DNA of 64,000 bases from Euhalothece natronophila Z-M001. GTDB lineage: Bacteria > Cyanobacteriota > Cyanobacteriia > Cyanobacteriales > Rubidibacteraceae. Of the stretch, positions 35,347 to 43,288 are shown piece after piece; within the stretch, counting starts at the first letter, position 1; each line of letters opens with the position of its first letter. Under the pieces are notes generated by a model that had not been told where the DNA came from, did not search any database, and worked only from the letters and a program-made list of their open reading frames with translations. The stretch spans positions 2,852,001 through 2,916,000 of the forward strand of contig NZ_CP042326.1 of NCBI RefSeq assembly GCF_007904085.1. The letters are read 5' to 3'. The position numbers and the translations under genes were made by a program.

Positions 35347-36543
35347 ATGAACTTATTTCTCCCTGAAGAAAACAACTTAACGATTCGCTCAATTCAAAAT
35401 CGAGATTTACCAGCGATTGAATCTTTACTGAGTAAATCCCATGAACTCCATCATAGTGGTTCTGCCATCGCTTTGGCGAAAGAAATTGAGAATTTTCGCG
35501 CTTTTTATAGCGCAATTAAGCTATTAAGCTTCTTTCCTAACCCTGCTCAACATCGCTTTTGCATCTATGTTGCGGAACAGGAAGAAAAAGTAGTAGGAGC
35601 GATTAAAGTTGCCCCGGCTAATAGTAGCCGTAGTACCTGGCAGGTGGAGCATATTTTAGTTGATCCTAACTATCCTGTTTCAGGGAAACGAATTGGTTCA
35701 CAACTATTGCGATACTGTTTTGAAACCATCTGGGAAGCAAGAACTTGGATTTTAGAAGTTAATATTCATCACAAAAATATTTTAAGCCTTTATCGACGTA
35801 ATGGCTTCCAGCCCTTAGCCCAATTTACCTATTGGTCGATTCCCTGTGAGAAGCTGAAAGAATTAGGAGAGCGAGAACCCAAACTCCCTAATTTACTTCC
35901 CATTAATAATGCTGATGCTCAATTACTTTACCAGCTAGATACAGTTTCTATGCCCCCCTTATTGCGTCAAGTGTTTGATCGTCATGTTAAAGATTTTCAA
36001 CGTAATATTTTTGACATGGTAATTAATCGCATTCAGCAGTGGTTAGGAAATGGAGGGCAAAGCCAAGGTTATGTCTTTGAACCGCAACGTAAAGCCGCGA
36101 TCGCGTATTACCAGTTAACTCAATCTCCTGACAGCTCCCTTCCCAACGCAGGTAAATTAACGGTTCATCCTGCTTACACCTGGCTCTATCCAGAACTCCT
36201 CAGCAAAATGGCACAATTAGTGTCAAAACGCGAAAATAAATCCCTACTCCTTGCTTCTGCCGACTATCAACCAGAAAGAGAAGAATATCTCGAAGAAATT
36301 GGCGCAGAAAGAGTTGAACATACCCTTCTTCTTTCTCGCTCTGTATGGCATAAATTGCGAGAAGCTCCCTCCTCTTCCTTGGAAAAGCTACAACTATCTG
36401 GAGTTTTACAAGGATTACGCCCCGGTCGCACTCCTATTCCTAGCCGTTTACCTTGGCTTAATTCTTGTGGTAATGACTTTTATCCTGAAAATGGCAATCA
36501 AGATCCTCTTACCCCAGACACTGGAGAAGGAGAAGAAGATTGA
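35347..36543 (+). CDS. GNAT family N-acetyltransferase
   Basis: Protein of 398 residues. The N-terminal GNAT domain (about 10-175) has the acetyl-CoA region VEHILVDPNYPVSGKRIGSQLLRYCFE, where G-K-R-I-G takes the place of the usual Q/R-x-x-G-x-G/A, and a later NILSLYRRNGFQPLAQFTYW that marks motif B. The C-terminal 200 residues may be a second, degenerate GNAT-like domain (PAYTWLYPELLSKMAQL). The substrate is unknown. The stop codon overlaps the start of ruvX, indicating translational coupling. Confidence 0.82.
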   Translation: MNLFLPEENNLTIRSIQNRDLPAIESLLSKSHELHHSGSAIALAKEIENFRAFYSAIKLLSFFPNPAQHRFCIYVAEQEEKVVGAIKVAPANSSRSTWQVEHILVDPNYPVSGKRIGSQLLRYCFETIWEARTWILEVNIHHKNILSLYRRNGFQPLAQFTYWSIPCEKLKELGEREPKLPNLLPINNADAQLLYQLDTVSMPPLLRQVFDRHVKDFQRNIFDMVINRIQQWLGNGGQSQGYVFEPQRKAAIAYYQLTQSPDSSLPNAGKLTVHPAYTWLYPELLSKMAQLVSKRENKSLLLASADYQPEREEYLEEIGAERVEHTLLLSRSVWHKLREAPSSSLEKLQLSGVLQGLRPGRTPIPSRLPWLNSCGNDFYPENGNQDPLTPDTGEGEED

Positions 36544-36986
36544 AAACAAAGTTATCGGTATTAGGGCTAGACATTGGAAAAAAACGGATTGGAGTTGCTG
36601 GTTGTGATGGCACAGGCTTAATTGCCACTCCAATTACGACCTTTGAAAGGACACACTTTAAAAATGATATAAATTACCTAAATGATCTAATTAATAAACG
36701 TCAAGTAACGATGTTGGTCATTGGTTTACCCTATACCCTTGATGGAACATTAGGAAAACAGGCGCAACGTATTCAAAGTTATGCAAAAAAGTTAGAGACA
36801 GCTTTGAAACTTCCTATTGAATATGTAGATGAGCGCCTAACTTCCATTGAAGCAGAAACATTATTGAAAACCAAAAAAGGATTTTCCCCGCGACGGGACA
36901 AAGCCCAAATTGATGCTCATGCTGCTGCCATTCTTCTGCAACAATGGCTTAACCAGCATCGAGAAAGTTTTAGCCAGAGATTGTGA
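36540..36986 (+). CDS. ruvX: Putative pre-16S rRNA nuclease / Holliday junction resolvase-like YqgF
   Basis: RNase H-fold nuclease of 148 residues. Motifs are LGLDIGKKRIGVAG with the first catalytic Asp, VIGLPYTLDGTLG, YVDERLTSIEAE with the catalytic Glu, and DAHAAAILLQ with the last Asp. YqgF proteins trim 16S rRNA ends and are also linked to recombination. The start codon is TTG at 36540, sharing bases with the TGA stop of the acetyltransferase gene (TTGA), so it relies on coupled translation. A MITE lies 10 bp after the stop. Confidence 0.93.
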   Translation: MKTKLSVLGLDIGKKRIGVAGCDGTGLIATPITTFERTHFKNDINYLNDLINKRQVTMLVIGLPYTLDGTLGKQAQRIQSYAKKLETALKLPIEYVDERLTSIEAETLLKTKKGFSPRRDKAQIDAHAAAILLQQWLNQHRESFSQRL

Positions 36987-36995
36987 GAATTTTAC

Positions 36996-37121
36996 TATAG
37001 CAATATGATCTCATTTGTAAAAACTAGTTCAACATTACGATCCCCCCTACCCCCCTTACTAAGGGGGGAATTAAAGGGGGGATCCCAACTAAAAAATTAC
37101 AACTGATTTAGGATTGCTATA
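36996..37121 (+). mobile_element. MITE copy 3, 126 bp
   Basis: TATAGCAAT to ATTGCTATA, with the same subterminal sequence as copy 2 and a central CCCCCCTTACTAAGGGGGG hairpin. It sits between ruvX and the 3' end of zorC. It is in inverted orientation relative to copy 4 on the other side of zorC. Its hairpin could stop transcripts from either side. Confidence 0.85.
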
Positions 37122-37133
37122 TTAATTTCTGAT

Positions 37134-38642
37134 TTACTCAGACTCAGTTTTTCCTCTTCTCTTTTGCCAATATTGTTTTGCTTCTGCTTCTAATTTCTCA
37201 ATATCTCTGCGCCATCTTACTAAATTTTTCTCTCGTTTTTCCTGTTTTTCTGCATTAGGAACAGGAAGCCCTTTATTAGGATCATAACGATCTAAAAATG
37301 GTTTATTGGGATTATTGGGATTCCTTCTTTTAAAGTGAGTTGTTCCATCATTCGGTAAAATGTTTCTTTGCCATAGCCATCTTTCACAGAAAAATTGCCA
37401 CAGATACTTATGATCATGAACTTCTCCCCCTAAAAAACGTAACCGTTTGATAGATAATTGAGAAGATGCAAATAATTCTTGTTCAATGTTGGGATATTGA
37501 TGACGATTAAAAAGACGAGTTTCGCTACCAGTTCCCCGAAAGAACTCAACAACAAACCAATCCCCAAAATCAAAAATACAAACTTCTGTTTTCTCACTTC
37601 CATCTTCTTGTAAAATATCTATATCTTGGTTTTCGACTACGTTCACTGAAGACTGAGGCAATAAAATCCGAATCCGCTCAAATTGATCTGAATATTGCTC
37701 CCAAAAATACTTTCTACTATCTAGTTGATTAGCCTCCCAATGAGGTAGGTTGAGTCTTTTTAAGATTAAATCTACGATTGTTTGAAAGTCTTGATAATTC
37801 GCTGCTCCAAACCACTTTCTTAAAGCCTTTTTCCCTTCAGAAGAAAGCCATTGCCATTTAGAATCTGCAATCCGTGAGCTATAATTATTTTGTAACCACT
37901 CCACTAAATTAGGAAACTGATTTCCAGAGTCTGGACTTACGTTTTTAAGTAAAGTTTCAACATTACTAACTTGCTGTGCCGTTTTCATTTCCTGAAAACA
38001 ATTGACTAACCATTCTCCTCCTGCTTCTAATTCCTGAAAAAATGCAGTCACAACATACTCCAAGCTATCTTCAACGACACTTAATTGAGTGGGTAATTGA
38101 GCCGTTGCAAATAACTCTTTGGGGGTTAATGCTTCTTCTTTCGCCAGTGTTACTAAGAATAAAAGCGGATCGCGTTGTTTAAGAATAATTAAAATATTAA
38201 TAGTGAGATCATCTTGAAGAATCTCTGATAAAGTAGAAAAGGTCTCAACAAAAGAGGGTGCGATCTGATTAAGATAGCCATCATAATAATAAGCTAGTCG
38301 CCAACATAAACGCCGTTTAATCCCATCATTATCTATAGCACACTGCCAAATTAGTCGTGATGTTGCTAATTGTTTTTCTCTAGAAGTGTAACTATCCCAG
38401 CTTGCTTTTTGATGAATACAATAAACCCATTCCAGCAAGCTAATATTATCAGCTTTTCCTTGTTCTAAATCTTGCATAATTTCATCTAAACTGCGAGGAG
38501 AGCGCAGAGCAAGGTTTGTAATATTTAATGGGATTTGTGATGATGAAACTTGCTCCTCATTATTAAAATTATGAGCTAATTTTGTTAAAGCCGTTGGTTT
38601 AAGTTGTAAAGGGGGAATAGAAACAATCGTTTTAAAGTCCAT
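37134..38642 (-). CDS. zorC: EH-signature domain protein, ZorC of a Zorya system
   Basis: Soluble protein of 502 residues. The N-terminal 300 residues are helical and unrecognised. The C-terminal region has the pattern of the EH_Signature domain: FGDWFVVEFFRG with the Glu, a stretch with RLFNRHQYPNI, then GEVHDHKYLWQFFCERWLW with the His. ZorC proteins of type I Zorya have this domain and are thought to bind DNA during the anti-phage response. Order and orientation (after zorA and zorB) fit. It is bracketed by inverted MITEs, and no zorD helicase gene follows. The assignment is by motif pattern and context. Confidence 0.75.
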   Translation of the reverse strand: MDFKTIVSIPPLQLKPTALTKLAHNFNNEEQVSSSQIPLNITNLALRSPRSLDEIMQDLEQGKADNISLLEWVYCIHQKASWDSYTSREKQLATSRLIWQCAIDNDGIKRRLCWRLAYYYDGYLNQIAPSFVETFSTLSEILQDDLTINILIILKQRDPLLFLVTLAKEEALTPKELFATAQLPTQLSVVEDSLEYVVTAFFQELEAGGEWLVNCFQEMKTAQQVSNVETLLKNVSPDSGNQFPNLVEWLQNNYSSRIADSKWQWLSSEGKKALRKWFGAANYQDFQTIVDLILKRLNLPHWEANQLDSRKYFWEQYSDQFERIRILLPQSSVNVVENQDIDILQEDGSEKTEVCIFDFGDWFVVEFFRGTGSETRLFNRHQYPNIEQELFASSQLSIKRLRFLGGEVHDHKYLWQFFCERWLWQRNILPNDGTTHFKRRNPNNPNKPFLDRYDPNKGLPVPNAEKQEKREKNLVRWRRDIEKLEAEAKQYWQKRRGKTESE

Positions 38643-38683
38643 TAGTATTTGTTTATCGCATTTTCAAAAAGTAAGTTACACTC

Positions 38684-38810
38684 TATAGCAATCCTAAATC
38701 AGTTGTAAATTTTTAGTTGGGATCCCCCCTTTAATTCCCCCCTTACTAAGGGGGGTGGGGGGGGATCGTAAGGTTGAACTAGTTTTTACAAATGAGATCA
38801 TATTGCTATA
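38684..38810 (-). mobile_element. MITE copy 4, 127 bp, inverted relative to copy 3
   Basis: TATAGCAAT ends enclose a reversed version of copy 3 with very few differences. It lies in the 205-bp gap between zorB and zorC. This is the only place in the operon where the genes are not tightly spaced, so the insertion probably separates two genes that were once adjacent. It may reduce zorC transcription. Confidence 0.85.
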
Positions 38811-38847
38811 TAACGCCTCTTAATAAAATCTGGATTGGGAATGGTGT

Positions 38848-39516
38848 TTATTCATCGAGAAAATTTTCTCGACGCATTTGAAAACGAAAGGTAACTTTTC
38901 GATCTGTCGGATCATCTATTTCTGGGTTAGCATCCATTTCTCCCCGTCCACTAATTAAAATTTTTTGTTCAAACTTATCTGCATTCGGAAACTTCAATTC
39001 ATCAGAAAAAATATAATTAGCAACAGATAAAGCCCGTTGTAAACTTAAAGCGCGATTATATGCTTCATCGCCAGCAGAACTGGTGTGTCCTTCAATCACC
39101 ACCCGTGCAATTTGTTCTTCAAATTCAGCTTGAGAAAAAATCACTTCACTATAAATAGGAATAAATTTGTCTAAAAATTCTTTTCCTTCTGCTCTTAATT
39201 CTGACTCATTTTCCTCAAATAGAATTTGGTCATCTAAACTGACATCACCCGTTTCTGGATCAACTTCAACTGCATCTCCACCTAATCCATCTTCAATCGC
39301 TGTCATAACAATTAATGGGAGATTCTTTAAGGCTTCTTCATATTGAGTTAATTCCTCAATTTTTCTTTGTAACTGCACTTGAGTGGTAATAAAAAGCAAA
39401 GCAAAAAATAGAAGCAAGCCTGACATTAAATCACTAATTGAAAGCCAAATTCCCGATTCTTGATCTTGCTCATCTTCTAACTCTAGTTCAGACTCAAACT
39501 CTTTAAAATTAACCAT
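38848..39516 (-). CDS. zorB: OmpA/MotB-like domain protein, ZorB of a Zorya system
   Basis: Inner-membrane protein of 222 residues. A single membrane helix (about 25-46) contains Asp29 in WLSISDLMSGLLLFF, matching the proton-channel Asp of MotB/ZorB stators. The C-terminal periplasmic OmpA-like domain has GHTSSAGDEAYNRALSLQRA and DPTDRKVTFRF, the peptidoglycan-binding pattern. It should pair with ZorA to form a proton-driven motor. The ATG giving MVNFKEF starts 13 bp after the zorA stop; an upstream in-frame ATG would overlap zorA and adds unrelated residues. Confidence 0.85.
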   Translation of the reverse strand: MVNFKEFESELELEDEQDQESGIWLSISDLMSGLLLFFALLFITTQVQLQRKIEELTQYEEALKNLPLIVMTAIEDGLGGDAVEVDPETGDVSLDDQILFEENESELRAEGKEFLDKFIPIYSEVIFSQAEFEEQIARVVIEGHTSSAGDEAYNRALSLQRALSVANYIFSDELKFPNADKFEQKILISGRGEMDANPEIDDPTDRKVTFRFQMRRENFLDE

Positions 39517-39529
39517 TGTTTTTCTCTCA

Positions 39530-40138
39530 TTATCTACGTTCTTGAGTATTCTGTAAATCATTGGCTGCGGTCACTAAGTATTCAGCAACGCCCATTAAAT
39601 TGTGAGAAGTAGCATTCAGTTGATTACAAACTTCTGCGGCTGCTTGTTCTGACTGTTCTCGCCCTTGTTGATAAGTGTCATTGGCTTGTTCAAAGTATTG
39701 GGTAAGATGCTGATTCCAAGTGTCTAAACCTTGATTAAAGTTTTGAATTAGCTTTTCATAGGCTTGATTGATTTTTTGTGATTCGCTGCCTAAGGTTCGA
39801 GAAATTTCTTGAATTTGTCCCAGTCTTTCGGCGGAAGTTAAACCAGTTGTATTAGCTAAATGAGCCACTGTTTCGGTAGTCTTTTGAATTTTATCCATGC
39901 TAGTGATAATTTCTTCTGACATTTGTTTAGCATCTTCTTGGAAAACAGTTTGTAGTTCTTTGATGACTTCTTCTAATCCTTCTCGCTGTTTTCCTAAAGT
40001 TTGTTCTAGTAAAGTATTTTGTTCGCTAAAAAATTGGTTCAAAGAGTCTTGGTAATTAGTACGGAATTTTTCTAATTCTTCCTCTACAGTTTGGCGAGTA
40101 TTTTGTAAGCTAGAATCAACATTAGTCAGTGTTCTATT
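39530..40138 (-). pseudogene. zorA: 3' part of zorA, cut off by an IS630 element
   Basis: These 202 codons, from NRTLTNVDSSLQ onward, are a continuous coiled-coil tail (QTVEEELEKFRTNYQ, QNFNQGLDTWNQHLTQYFEQ) with no start of their own. The readable frame continues upstream only into the insertion element. Joining base 40138 to 41258 (element and one TA removed) places this part in frame after codon 448 of the 5' part and gives a 650-residue ZorA. Long helical tails are typical of ZorA and are needed for function in studied systems. Confidence 0.8.
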
Positions 40139-40140
40139 TA

Positions 40141-41257
40141 TTAATCCGTGCAGGAAATAGTTAACACCTAAAGGCCAGCATATTGAACTGGCTGAGCCCA
40201 AAAATAACGACTAATACGTTCGGGACATTTCTGAAGACTGTATAAATAAGAGCGAACCCTTTTCATGAGTTCATTACGATTACGGGGTCTTTGTCGTCTC
40301 ATAGCATTGCTTTTAATGTCCTGATTGAGAAATTCATCGGGATTTCGTTCTGGGCTGTAGGGGGGAAGATAAAACAGTTCCAATTCATCCTGATGTTGAG
40401 CTACCCATTGTTGAACTTTACGGGAGCGATGTACTGGGTGGCGATCTACAATCAAAAAAACTTTGTTTTCCCTGGAGCGAATTAATCGGCGTAAAAATTC
40501 CAAAAAGACATCGCTATTAAATCCCCCTTGAAATACTTGAAAGCGTAGGGTTCCTCGATTGGTCAGGGCGGAAATTAAGTTGCAACTGAAACGTTGCCCA
40601 GTTCCTTCTACAATTGGCGTTTTCCCTACCTCAGACCAACAAGTCCCTGCTTGATGGTCCGAACGCAATCCCATTTCATCACCCCAATGAATCTCAGCTC
40701 CTTCCTGCTGTGCTCGCTTGTGAATCGCTGGATATTCATGAGTTAACCAATGCTGAAGCTGGTGAGGACATTGCTCACGAGCGCATTTGGCAGGCTTTTG
40801 TGGAGACAGTCCCCAACGACGCAGATAACGACCAATCGTCGTTTGAGAAAGAGTAATTCCCCAACATTGTTCAATGAGCTGAGATACGGCTTGTCGAGTC
40901 CAGAGAGTAAATGGCAGTTGTAGTTGTTCTGGGCTGTAATCCCGAATGAGACGAGTAATTGTCGTTACCTGCGATCGCGCCAAGGTAGGATGCTCACGAC
41001 GACCTTGTTTACAAGCTTTGAGAGCTGTCTCACCCCCACGACGGTAACGTTGCACCCACTGATTAACTGCTGTACGAGTAACTCCAAACTCTTGGGCCAC
41101 TTCTCCTTGAGAACGTTTGTTCTCAATCACTGCCATGACCGCCCTTTTACGGATTGCTTGTTGAGCTTGAGGGGGTAAACTCCGAGCGTCTTTTAATTGC
41201 ATATAGAAAACTGCCGTACTTCACTTTCCCATGTTAACTATTTAGCGCACGGATTAA
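40141..41257 (-). mobile_element. IS630-family insertion sequence in zorA, 1117 bp
   Basis: The element begins with TTAATCCGTGC and ends with its complement. The terminal inverted repeats are 26 bp with three central mismatches (40141-40166 and 41232-41257). It is flanked by TA on both sides (40139-40140 and 41258-41259), the target duplication expected for IS630/Tc1-mariner elements. It holds one complete transposase gene in the same direction as zorA. The sharp ends and intact transposase suggest a recent insertion. Confidence 0.9.
40168..41202 (-). CDS. IS630-family DDE transposase
   Basis: Protein of 344 residues. The N-terminal helix-turn-helix part (SQGEVAQEFGVTRTAVNQWVQRYRRGG) binds the terminal repeats. 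The DDE core has Asp in EIHWGDEMGLRSDH, Asp in VFLIVDRHPVHRS and Glu or Asp in YLPPYSPERNPDEFLNQDIK, the IS630 signature. The frame is uninterrupted, so the enzyme should be functional. It lies inside the 26-bp terminal repeats of the element that splits zorA. Confidence 0.93.
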   Translation of the reverse strand: MQLKDARSLPPQAQQAIRKRAVMAVIENKRSQGEVAQEFGVTRTAVNQWVQRYRRGGETALKACKQGRREHPTLARSQVTTITRLIRDYSPEQLQLPFTLWTRQAVSQLIEQCWGITLSQTTIGRYLRRWGLSPQKPAKCAREQCPHQLQHWLTHEYPAIHKRAQQEGAEIHWGDEMGLRSDHQAGTCWSEVGKTPIVEGTGQRFSCNLISALTNRGTLRFQVFQGGFNSDVFLEFLRRLIRSRENKVFLIVDRHPVHRSRKVQQWVAQHQDELELFYLPPYSPERNPDEFLNQDIKSNAMRRQRPRNRNELMKRVRSYLYSLQKCPERISRYFWAQPVQYAGL

Positions 41258-42601
41258 TAAGTTTTCACTCGCCTGAGTCATTATCTCTGAGGCTTCACTT
41301 CCGACACGAGTAAGAGTATTAGACTGTTCAGCAAAAGCATTATTGGCTTCTTGTAAGATATGTTCGGTGGAATGTTGGACATTTTCTAACATCGTTTGCT
41401 GTTGTTGCGCTTGGGTGGTGAGGGAGGCTTGTAAATCTTCTCGTATTCCTCGGAAGGTGTGAGAGGCTTGTTCAGCGCTTTCTGCAAAAGCTGTGCGTTG
41501 GGCTTCCATTCCTGAAATGCTTTCATTAACAGCGTAGTTAATATCTGTCGCCACTTTTTCCATCACTCCTTGAGTATCCGTTTTAAATTGATCTAAAATT
41601 TGTTTTAAGTTTTGGGCAAAATCTTCTAATTCTCCAAGGGTTTGTTCTTGGAATTGTTGGATGGTTTGAATTGAGGTGGCTAAACTGTCAGAAATCCCCC
41701 CTAATTCTTGTTTTAATTCTTGAACTGCGTTGGAGGCTTCTTTAGTGGTTTCTGCACTCGCGTCAAGACGATTAGCTATTGGTTCAATTACCTCGGTTCG
41801 TAATTCTCCTACGACAGTTTTTATGACTTCTTGACGTTGAGTTTCAATGGTTTGACGTTGCTGGTTTAAATCAGTTTTAATTTCATCAAATGTAGGTGTT
41901 AAAGCAGTAGCTACTTCTGCGCCAATGGTTTCTGGTTGAAGTGTTTTTAAAGTTTGTAAGGTTTGGTATTGTGCGTTGAGATCATTTCTCACTTCCTGTA
42001 AGCTAGGTTGTAAGGAATTAGCTATTTCTTTTCCCATCGTTTTCGGATTTAAATTGGCTAATCCTTCCATTTTTTCCGCTAGCTTTCCTAATTGAACAAT
42101 TAACGCCTCTTCTGTATTGTTATTACTACGTCTGTCTCTGTCTCGAATTTGTTTAATTAGATGATTTCGACGACGGCGTTTGCTCATTTCACTAACAGCA
42201 AGGATAACAATGAAGAAACTGGCACTTCCTAACCCCCAAAGAGAAGTTTGGAAAGCGGTTTGCATTCCTGTTAAAATTTCTGTACTGTTTCTAATTAGCG
42301 CATCACTATCGTTAATTGCTTCTAGGTTAATGCCTTGAAAGCCAAAATAAATCCCTGTAAATGTTCCTAAAATTCCCAGTGCTGTTAGGAGTGTAGGAAT
42401 AAAATGGAGGGGGCTACGAGTATTTCCTTTCTGGAAAATTGAAAGGTCAGATTGATTGCCTTTTTTGTTTTCTTGCAAGGTAGTTTTGGTTTGTTGCCAA
42501 TAGTTTAGGCTGAGGAGAATTTCAATAATGATTCCTGTAATAAAAACTAAACAAATGGCAGTAATAAAAACGAAGTTAACTGAATTGTCTAGATGCAGCA
42601 T
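41234..42601 (-). pseudogene. zorA: 5' part of zorA (MotA-like stator subunit), interrupted by IS630
   Basis: The N-terminal region has a membrane helix (about 8-31), then FIPTLLTALGILGTFTGIYFGF and LLTGMQTAFQTSLWGLGSASFF-like helices (about 67-90 and 118-145) that match the MotA/TolQ/ExbB fold used by ZorA. A long helical, Gln- and Glu-rich tail follows from about 175. The native frame runs to codon 448; the last seven codons (LIRALNS) come from the IS end. Upstream of zorB as in Zorya operons. The truncated product keeps the membrane part but loses about a third of the tail. Confidence 0.82.
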
Positions 42602-42714: not shown

Positions 42715-43056
42715 TTATGTGTCTTTGACTACAATCAACTGCTCTAATTCCTCAGGAGTTAATATTTTTGTAGCCACACGAGCAGGAATATGGGCTGCAT
42801 TCCAATATTCGTCAATGGGGTGATGTAAGCGAATACTATAAACGGCTTCTTTGCTTTCGGTTTCGTCATCAAGGATGAGATAAACTTGTTGGGGATAGTT
42901 TCGTAGGAGGCGAATTTGCAAGCTTGTTTTTAAGTCTCTGAGGGAGGTAGCCAGAGGAGCGTTTGGGGCTAATAATTGCTCTGAGGCTTCTTTCCAAGCG
43001 TGATTAATGGCATTAACTTCAGTAATTAAAGTTTTCACCTGAGGAGATAGTTCCAT
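42715..43056 (-). CDS. Small hypothetical protein upstream of zorA
   Basis: Soluble protein of 113 residues that I do not recognise. It has an N-terminal helical half (ALATSLRDLKTSLQIRLLR-like) and a beta-rich half (QVYLILDDETESKEAVYSIRLHHPIDEYWNAAHIPARV). It is on the same strand as the Zorya operon and 113 bp upstream of zorA. It could be an operon member, a regulator or an unrelated gene at the island edge. Only its position links it to Zorya. Confidence 0.6.
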   Translation of the reverse strand: MELSPQVKTLITEVNAINHAWKEASEQLLAPNAPLATSLRDLKTSLQIRLLRNYPQQVYLILDDETESKEAVYSIRLHHPIDEYWNAAHIPARVATKILTPEELEQLIVVKDT

Positions 43057-43146
43057 GAGTTTAATATTGTGTTTCTAATCAAGAAACGATTAACTCCCCC
43101 AAAGTGTGTACTCAGAACAGAAACTTTTTTAAATTGTTGGGAAAAA

Positions 43147-43227
43147 TGCGGACGGAGAGACTCGAACTCTCACGTCAGAGACACTAGAACCTAAATCTAG
43201 CGCGTCTACCAATTCCGCCACGTCCGC
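43147..43227 (-). tRNA. tRNA-Leu (anticodon UAG)
   Basis: The minus strand folds as a class II tRNA. The acceptor arms GCGGACG and CGTCCGC pair perfectly, the D region has GGCGGAATTGGTAGACGCG, the anticodon stem CTAGA/TCTAG encloses TTTAGGT (anticodon TAG), a variable arm follows, and the T loop is GTTCGAGTC. CCA is not encoded. It borders the Zorya region, a common place for integration of foreign DNA. Confidence 0.95.
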
Positions 43228-43288
43228 ATAAGCATCGCGAGGTAAAATATACCATATTTATGGGGAATCGACAAGTCCTAAACAAATT

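What the first reader, a model, noticed from the sequence alone, without database searches (positions are those of the whole stretch)
37134..42601. A Zorya anti-phage operon whose zorA is split by a clean insertion, and which lacks zorD
Seen: a MotA-like membrane protein with a long coiled-coil tail, an OmpA/MotB-like protein with an Asp in its single helix, and an EH-signature-like protein follow each other on one strand. Known: this is the zorA-zorB-zorC order of type I Zorya. Removing the IS630 element plus one TA joins codon 448 to the downstream part exactly in frame, giving 650 codons with no other defect. The operon ends at zorC without the SNF2-type helicase zorD. Inference: the system was active until recently and is now switched off, or is reversibly silenced if the element excises. 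It may also be a D-less variant.
Basis: partly seen in the sequence, partly recalled or inferred. Interest (0 to 1): 0.82.

Follow-up and report, generated by a model that had tools for sequence, protein, structure and literature searches.

The report
D-less cyanobacterial Zorya, interrupted by IS630
This cyanobacterium carries an anti-phage motor operon of the Zorya kind, recently cut by a jumping gene; relatives show that the whole cyanobacterial branch lacks the usual DNA-cutting helicase gene and instead keeps a small, so far unnamed fourth gene beside the motor.

Summary
zorA, zorB and zorC are real (PADLOC E 7e-155/4e-79, 1e-78, 4e-202; the ZorC fold hits only E. coli-type ZorC, PDB 8R68, below 1e-3). 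zorA is cut by a 1117-bp IS630 element with a TA duplication. Seven identical copies lie in the genome, and the two halves meet in frame at codon 448 (650 codons). No zorD lies nearby; the genome's best ZorD-profile hit is a housekeeping SNF2 helicase found in 349 of 373 cyanobacterial genomes.

The reading changes in two ways. First, lacking zorD is not damage in this strain: none of 47 fetched loci has a zorD, including intact loci in this genus. X occurs in 23 of 386 genomes, 22 of which have zorC (Fisher p about 2e-29); it stays linked even where the order is ABC-X, is under purifying selection, and matches no known family or fold.

So this is an interrupted member of a cyanobacterial D-less Zorya variant, X-zorA-zorB-zorC. 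Since deleting zorD abolishes canonical type I defence (PMC11890865), the effector of this branch is an open, testable question.

The parts
42715..43056 (-). Gene X: 113-aa soluble protein, conserved fourth member of the operon, no known family
   Evidence: Found in 23 of 386 cyanobacterial genomes, 22 of them with zorC; X found in 29 fetched loci, beside zor genes; dN/dS 0.13-0.45; AlphaFold2 pLDDT 92; no useful Pfam/PADLOC/NCBIfam/PHROG/PDB/BFVD match
41258..42601 (-). zorA, 5' part (codons 1-448): MotA/ExbB domain and first part of the cytoplasmic tail; the ORF now runs 7 codons into the element and stops at 41234
   Evidence: PADLOC PDLC00597 ZorA1 6.9e-155; junction
40141..41257 (-). IS630-family element, 1117 bp, transposase 40168-41202 (344 aa), TA target duplication at 40139-40140 and 41258-41259
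   Evidence: NCBIfam transpos_IS630 8.4e-65, Pfam DDE_3 3.7e-37; six further identical copies in the genome
39530..40138 (-). zorA, 3' part (codons 449-650 and stop): conserved distal end of the tail
   Evidence: PADLOC PDLC00597 positions 479-681, 4.3e-79; kept even in G001, whose ZorA has a shortened tail
38848..39516 (-). zorB, 222 aa, one transmembrane helix with the conserved Asp, OmpA/MotB peptidoglycan-binding domain
   Evidence: PADLOC PDLC00609 ZorB1 1.2e-78; profile aligns with solved ZorB 8qyd, 8vvi and 8vvn; start and helix
38684..38811 (.). MITE-like repeat between zorB and zorC
   Evidence: 48 matches in the genome, roughly 17 near full length; inverted, 96%-complementary arms with the copy at 36996-37121
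37134..38642 (-). zorC, 502 aa, helical N-terminal part and C-terminal EH-signature domain (E366, H409, D410)
   Evidence: PADLOC PDLC00618 ZorC1 4.2e-202; Pfam EH_Signature 7.5e-21; fold match 8R68 ZorC 3.1e-5
36996..37121 (.). Second, inverted copy of the MITE-like repeat, directly after zorC

Best explanation
This is a member of a cyanobacterial Zorya variant made of X, ZorA, ZorB and ZorC, without ZorD, whose zorA has recently been interrupted by an IS630 insertion. Shown by sequence: gene content, the clade-wide absence of zorD, the conserved fourth gene, and the break in zorA. Inferred from solved Zorya systems: five ZorA and two ZorB form a peptidoglycan-anchored ion-driven motor that senses the envelope being breached, and the ZorA tail passes the signal to cytosolic partners. 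Inferred here: in this branch the receiver is ZorC acting together with X, so the attack on phage DNA is done by ZorC/X or by a nuclease borrowed from the cell, not by ZorD. In this strain the insertion removes the last 202 residues of ZorA, so the motor core could still be made but its tail end, and with it signalling, should be lost.
For: ZorA/B/C profiles and ZorC fold. ZorB Asp invariant in 33 relatives; ZorC E366 and D410 invariant and H409 in 30 of 32. No zorD in 47 loci; the only SNF2 proteins there are DpdE- and DruE-type ones on a Nostoc plasmid (L121), PbeA near L018 and a helicase at the far edge of L008. Every EH_Signature protein found in 373 cyanobacterial genomes belongs to this ZorC set. 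X linkage: 22 of 23 X genomes have zorC, p about 2e-29; X changed sides (ABC-X is one supported clade in the ZorC tree) yet stayed adjacent. X is under purifying selection like B and C. IS insertion: TA duplication, seven identical copies, in-frame junction. The ZorA tail is required for defence in types I and II (PMC11890865).
Against: No functional data for any XABC system. Deleting any one component of canonical type I, zorD included, abolishes defence (PMC11890865), so an ABC set without ZorD is not expected to work by the canonical route. X is absent from one ABC locus of this genus (G001/L018) and from three genomes of another genus where zorC lies apart from zorAB, so X is not universal. 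ZorAB-like pairs without ZorC exist elsewhere in the phylum and may not be defence. Many copies are decayed (L012, L014, L100-L104), which fits defence turnover but also plain loss of function.
Confidence: 0.72

Rival explanations
1. Split system with ZorD in trans: ZorABC works with a helicase encoded elsewhere, most likely the conserved cyanobacterial SNF2 helicase that resembles the helicase part of ZorD.
For: The own-genome SNF2 helicase hits ZorD1 model PDLC00633 with 420 bits and is present in 349 of 373 genomes. Genomes of one genus keep zorAB and zorC at separate loci, so linkage is not strictly needed.
Against: It matches only the helicase part (profile about 334-885 of 908), not the N-terminal third; it occurs in nearly all cyanobacteria whether or not zorC is present; it hits a DpdE model almost as well; no locus has it beside zorC.
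Confidence: 0.12
2. The XABC motor is not an anti-phage system but an envelope or DNA-related motor of another function, sharing ancestry with Zorya.
For: ZorAB-like pairs without ZorC sit beside housekeeping genes (coproporphyrinogen oxidase, phosphofructokinase, DUF711) in other members of the phylum.
Against: XABC is patchy (28 of 386 genomes by zorC), sits at different places even within one genus, decays often, is also carried by a mobilizable plasmid next to a DpdE-type defence gene, and keeps the EH-signature protein otherwise known from Zorya.
Confidence: 0.12
3. This strain's operon is simply a degenerate type I Zorya that lost zorD, then zorA.
For: Other decayed copies exist (L014, L100-L104), and this one has an IS and two MITE-like repeats in or beside its genes.
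Against: No relative found in the phylum has zorD either, including intact loci in the same genus and in about ten other families; zorB, zorC and X are full length with conserved key residues.
Confidence: 0.04

Closest known systems
Zorya type I (zorA-zorB-zorC-zorD; E. coli, Serratia, Shewanella systems)
   Same: ZorA with MotA-like core and long tail, ZorB with transmembrane Asp and OmpA domain, EH-signature ZorC, order A-B-C; best PADLOC models all carry type I labels; ZorC fold matches 8R68
   Different: No zorD; extra conserved small gene X; ZorC matches only one PADLOC ZorC model (PDLC00618) and its sequence profile does not find the solved ZorC, so it is a deep branch
Zorya type II (zorA-zorB-zorE)
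   Same: ZorAB motor; like here, fewer large cytosolic partners than type I
   Different: No ZorE HNH nuclease; has ZorC instead
Zorya type III (motor genes with zorF and zorG)
   Same: ZorAB-type motor with two other partner genes
   Different: X and ZorC do not match DUF3348 or DUF2894
PADLOC relaxed 'other' class (two co-localised defence genes; PMC8565338)
   Same: PADLOC-DB 2.0.0 already holds models for this branch's ZorA, ZorB and ZorC, so a scan would probably flag the locus
   Different: The class does not describe a defined D-less system and the library has no model for X

Membership tests
Zorya (any type) | ZorA: MotA/ExbB-like membrane protein with long cytoplasmic tail | tested here: met
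   PDLC00597 6.9e-155 and 4.3e-79 on the two parts; in this strain cut by IS630, intact in G002 and G004
Zorya (any type) | ZorB: single helix with conserved Asp and OmpA-type peptidoglycan-binding domain | tested here: met
   PDLC00609 1.2e-78, Pfam OmpA 1.8e-13; Asp aligned with solved ZorB and invariant in 33
Zorya type I | ZorC with EH-signature domain | tested here: met
   PF15611 7.5e-21, PDLC00618 4.2e-202, fold hit 8R68 3.1e-5
Zorya type I | ZorD, SNF2 helicase with Mrr-like nuclease, in the operon | tested here: not met
   None in the window or in 47 related loci; genome-wide best hit is a housekeeping SNF2 helicase
Zorya type I | Anti-phage activity | not testable with these tools
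   Needs infection assays
Zorya type II | ZorE HNH endonuclease | tested here: not met
   No HNH-type match in the proteins of the operon; only A, B, C and X are conserved neighbours
Zorya type III | ZorF (DUF3348) and ZorG (DUF2894) | tested here: not met
   Pfam scans of X and ZorC show neither
Flagellar MotAB / TolQR / ExbBD | Better match to those families than to ZorAB | tested here: not met
   ZorA: MotA_ExbB only 22.0 bits, below the Pfam cut-off, against 515 bits for ZorA1; ZorB: best NCBIfam is ZorB1 at 52 bits (below its cut-off), PADLOC ZorB1 262 bits

The most novel reading that the evidence does not exclude
X-zorA-zorB-zorC is a separate Zorya type in Cyanobacteria in which a new small protein of unmatched fold, with ZorC, has replaced the ZorD nuclease as the effector or effector adaptor, so the motor is coupled to a new way of stopping phage DNA.
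Probability: 0.4. Interest if true: 0.78.

Novelty: new variant of a known kind. Interest (0 to 1): 0.62.

Why it matters
In canonical type I Zorya every component, ZorD included, is needed for defence, and ZorD is taken as the part that attacks DNA. A branch that keeps the motor and ZorC across about ten cyanobacterial families without ZorD shows either that ZorC can act with another partner or that the output of the motor differs. X is a ready candidate for that partner, and intact loci exist in sequenced relatives, so the question of what the Zorya motor switches on becomes directly testable. It would also correct annotation: on the Nostoc HK-01 plasmid three of the four genes are 'hypothetical protein'.

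Tried and rejected
Looked for ZorD elsewhere in the genome: nine SNF2-type matches; the seven scanned were other defence helicases (DrmD, DpdE twice, PbeA, PLD-helicase, DruE-like) or the housekeeping helicase. Looked for other conserved neighbours of zorC in 38 loci: none beyond A, B, C and X except shared housekeeping synteny. Tried to identify X by Pfam, PADLOC, NCBIfam, PHROGs, PDB sequence, PDB fold and viral fold: nothing useful. Suspected that a 113-aa protein beside ZorAB-like genes in distant members of the phylum (L139) was an X relative: hhalign says no (probability 0.1%). Could not fetch a canonical zorABCD locus as a positive control for the neighbourhood scan: plasmid hits by tblastn were type II or plain OmpA. 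The main structural paper on type I (Hu et al. 2025) is not held.
Full report
What is there. On the minus strand from 43056 down to 37134 lie four genes in the order X (42715-43056), zorA (42601 to 39530, interrupted), zorB (39516-38848) and zorC (38642-37134). A tRNA-Leu gene lies just upstream of X (43146-43228), and a GNAT-like gene and ruvX-like gene, conserved in the genus (35347-36986), lie on the other side.

The interruption. The element is 40141-41257, 1117 bp, with imperfect terminal inverted repeats and TA on both sides, and carries one 344-aa IS630-family transposase. Six other copies in the genome are identical over all 1117 bp, each at a TA. Reading the two flanks of zorA across the empty site gives codon 448 (Leu) followed directly by Asn449 and a single stop after 650 codons. 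The insertion therefore looks recent and is the only coding defect found in the four genes. It cuts off the last 202 residues of the ZorA tail. In the relative G001 the ZorA tail is shortened internally, but the same last ~200 residues are kept at 73% identity, which suggests that this end matters; in tested type I and II systems the cytoplasmic extension is required for defence (PMC11890865). MITE-like repeats have also landed between zorB and zorC and directly after zorC, in opposite orientations.

Absence of zorD is the normal state here. Same-genus relatives G001, G002 and G004 have intact zorABC with no helicase next to it. A survey of 386 cyanobacterial genomes with a ZorC profile found 28 with zorC. 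I fetched the surroundings of these and of the genome contigs relatives and scanned 47 loci and the window with the SNF2 helicases of this genome as queries: the only hits were DpdE- and DruE-type helicases on the Nostoc HK-01 plasmid, a PbeA-type protein near L018 and a helicase at the far edge of L008. Some loci are cut by contig ends, so a distant gene could be missed there. A separate search with the Pfam EH_Signature family in 373 genomes found 24 genomes, all of them already in the ZorC set, so no canonical ZorABCD locus turned up in the phylum sample. In the own genome the best ZorD-profile hit is a probably intein-bearing SNF2 helicase at C1:2563928-2566192; 349 of 373 genomes have a hit to the same model, most of them proteins of about 1000-1080 aa matching only its helicase part, so it is not a ZorD.

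The fourth gene. A profile search finds it in 23 of 386 genomes, 22 of which have zorC, each close to the zor genes or, in G211, on a contig that ends inside zorA; Fisher's exact test gives p about 2e-29 (related genomes inflate this, but 16 genera are involved). In one supported clade of the ZorC tree X sits after zorC instead of before zorA (L096-L099), so it has moved but stayed linked. X has no transmembrane segment, a confident model (pLDDT 92: two helices, a three-stranded sheet, two short helices), 14 invariant residues in 29 sequences, among them W21, K22, K43, Q47, D63, E70, H89, P91 and R93, and dN/dS of 0.13-0.45 between close relatives. It matches no Pfam, PADLOC, NCBIfam, PHROG, PDB or BFVD entry at a useful level. 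It is missing from the ABC locus of G001 and from three genomes of one genus where zorC lies apart from zorAB.

ZorC. The model (pLDDT 87) has a helical N-terminal part and an alpha/beta C-terminal part holding the EH signature (E366 and D410 invariant, H409 in 30 of 32). Its only PDB fold hit below 1e-3 is 8R68, ZorC (3.1e-5), although a sequence profile does not find that structure. The six cyanobacterial ZorC proteins scanned match only one PADLOC ZorC model. It is ZorC, but a deep branch. No extra nuclease domain was detected.

Mechanism. Shown: the parts, their linkage and their conservation. From published Zorya work: ZorA5B2 forms a peptidoglycan-binding ion-driven motor whose ZorA tail is proposed to signal to cytosolic nuclease partners, and in canonical type I the removal of any component, ZorD included, abolishes defence (PMC11890865). 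Inferred: the cyanobacterial branch uses the same sensor and ZorC, with X in the place of ZorD as partner or adaptor; less likely, a cellular helicase is borrowed. In the present strain the system should be off because the ZorA tail is truncated; zorB and zorC may still be transcribed from or through the IS, whose transposase lies on the same strand.

Status as defence. Patchy occurrence, different insertion places within one genus (the ruvX neighbourhood of the window holds other genes in G001-G004), presence on a mobilizable plasmid beside another defence gene and frequent decay (L012, L014, L100-L104) fit a defence system. ZorAB-like pairs without ZorC beside housekeeping genes elsewhere in the phylum are a warning that not every such motor need be defence.

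Novelty. No paper found in the held library describes a D-less Zorya or gene X; the founding 2018 paper was not consulted and the 2025 Nature paper is not held, so an earlier listing of such loci in a supplement cannot be excluded. PADLOC already models the ZorA, ZorB and ZorC of this branch. I therefore call it a new variant of a known kind.

Noticed in passing
36996-37121 and 38684-38811: Two inverted copies of a MITE-like repeat (48 matches genome-wide) flank zorC closely, so recombination between them could flip zorC.
   Followed up: partly
L106 / G000:C1:2563928-2566192: Core SNF2 helicase with a homing-endonuclease-type insertion (probable intein; 1496-aa frame) splitting the helicase domain.
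   Followed up: partly
L022, L023, L025 / G000:C2:11820-12329, 79395-79850, 69198-69638: The 82-kb contig C2 carries two DpdE-like helicases and a DruE-like protein; probably a defence-rich plasmid.
   Followed up: no
L130-L132 with L093-L095: In three genomes of one genus zorAB and zorC lie at separate loci and X is absent: a dispersed Zorya.
   Followed up: partly
L133, L135, L136, L137: ZorAB pairs of the same subfamily without zorC, some beside housekeeping genes such as coproporphyrinogen oxidase or phosphofructokinase.
   Followed up: partly
L139:8045-11426: In over 100 small genomes of one distant family of the phylum a ZorB-like protein is widespread; in the one locus read it sits with a ZorA-like gene, a DUF711 gene and a 113-aa ORF unrelated to X.
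   Followed up: partly
L104:9515-11464: ZorA and the end of ZorC read as one 649-aa frame, apparently a deletion fusion that removed zorB.
   Followed up: no
L102: G050 keeps the Nostoc neighbourhood of the operon but only a fragment of zorC: in-place decay.
   Followed up: no
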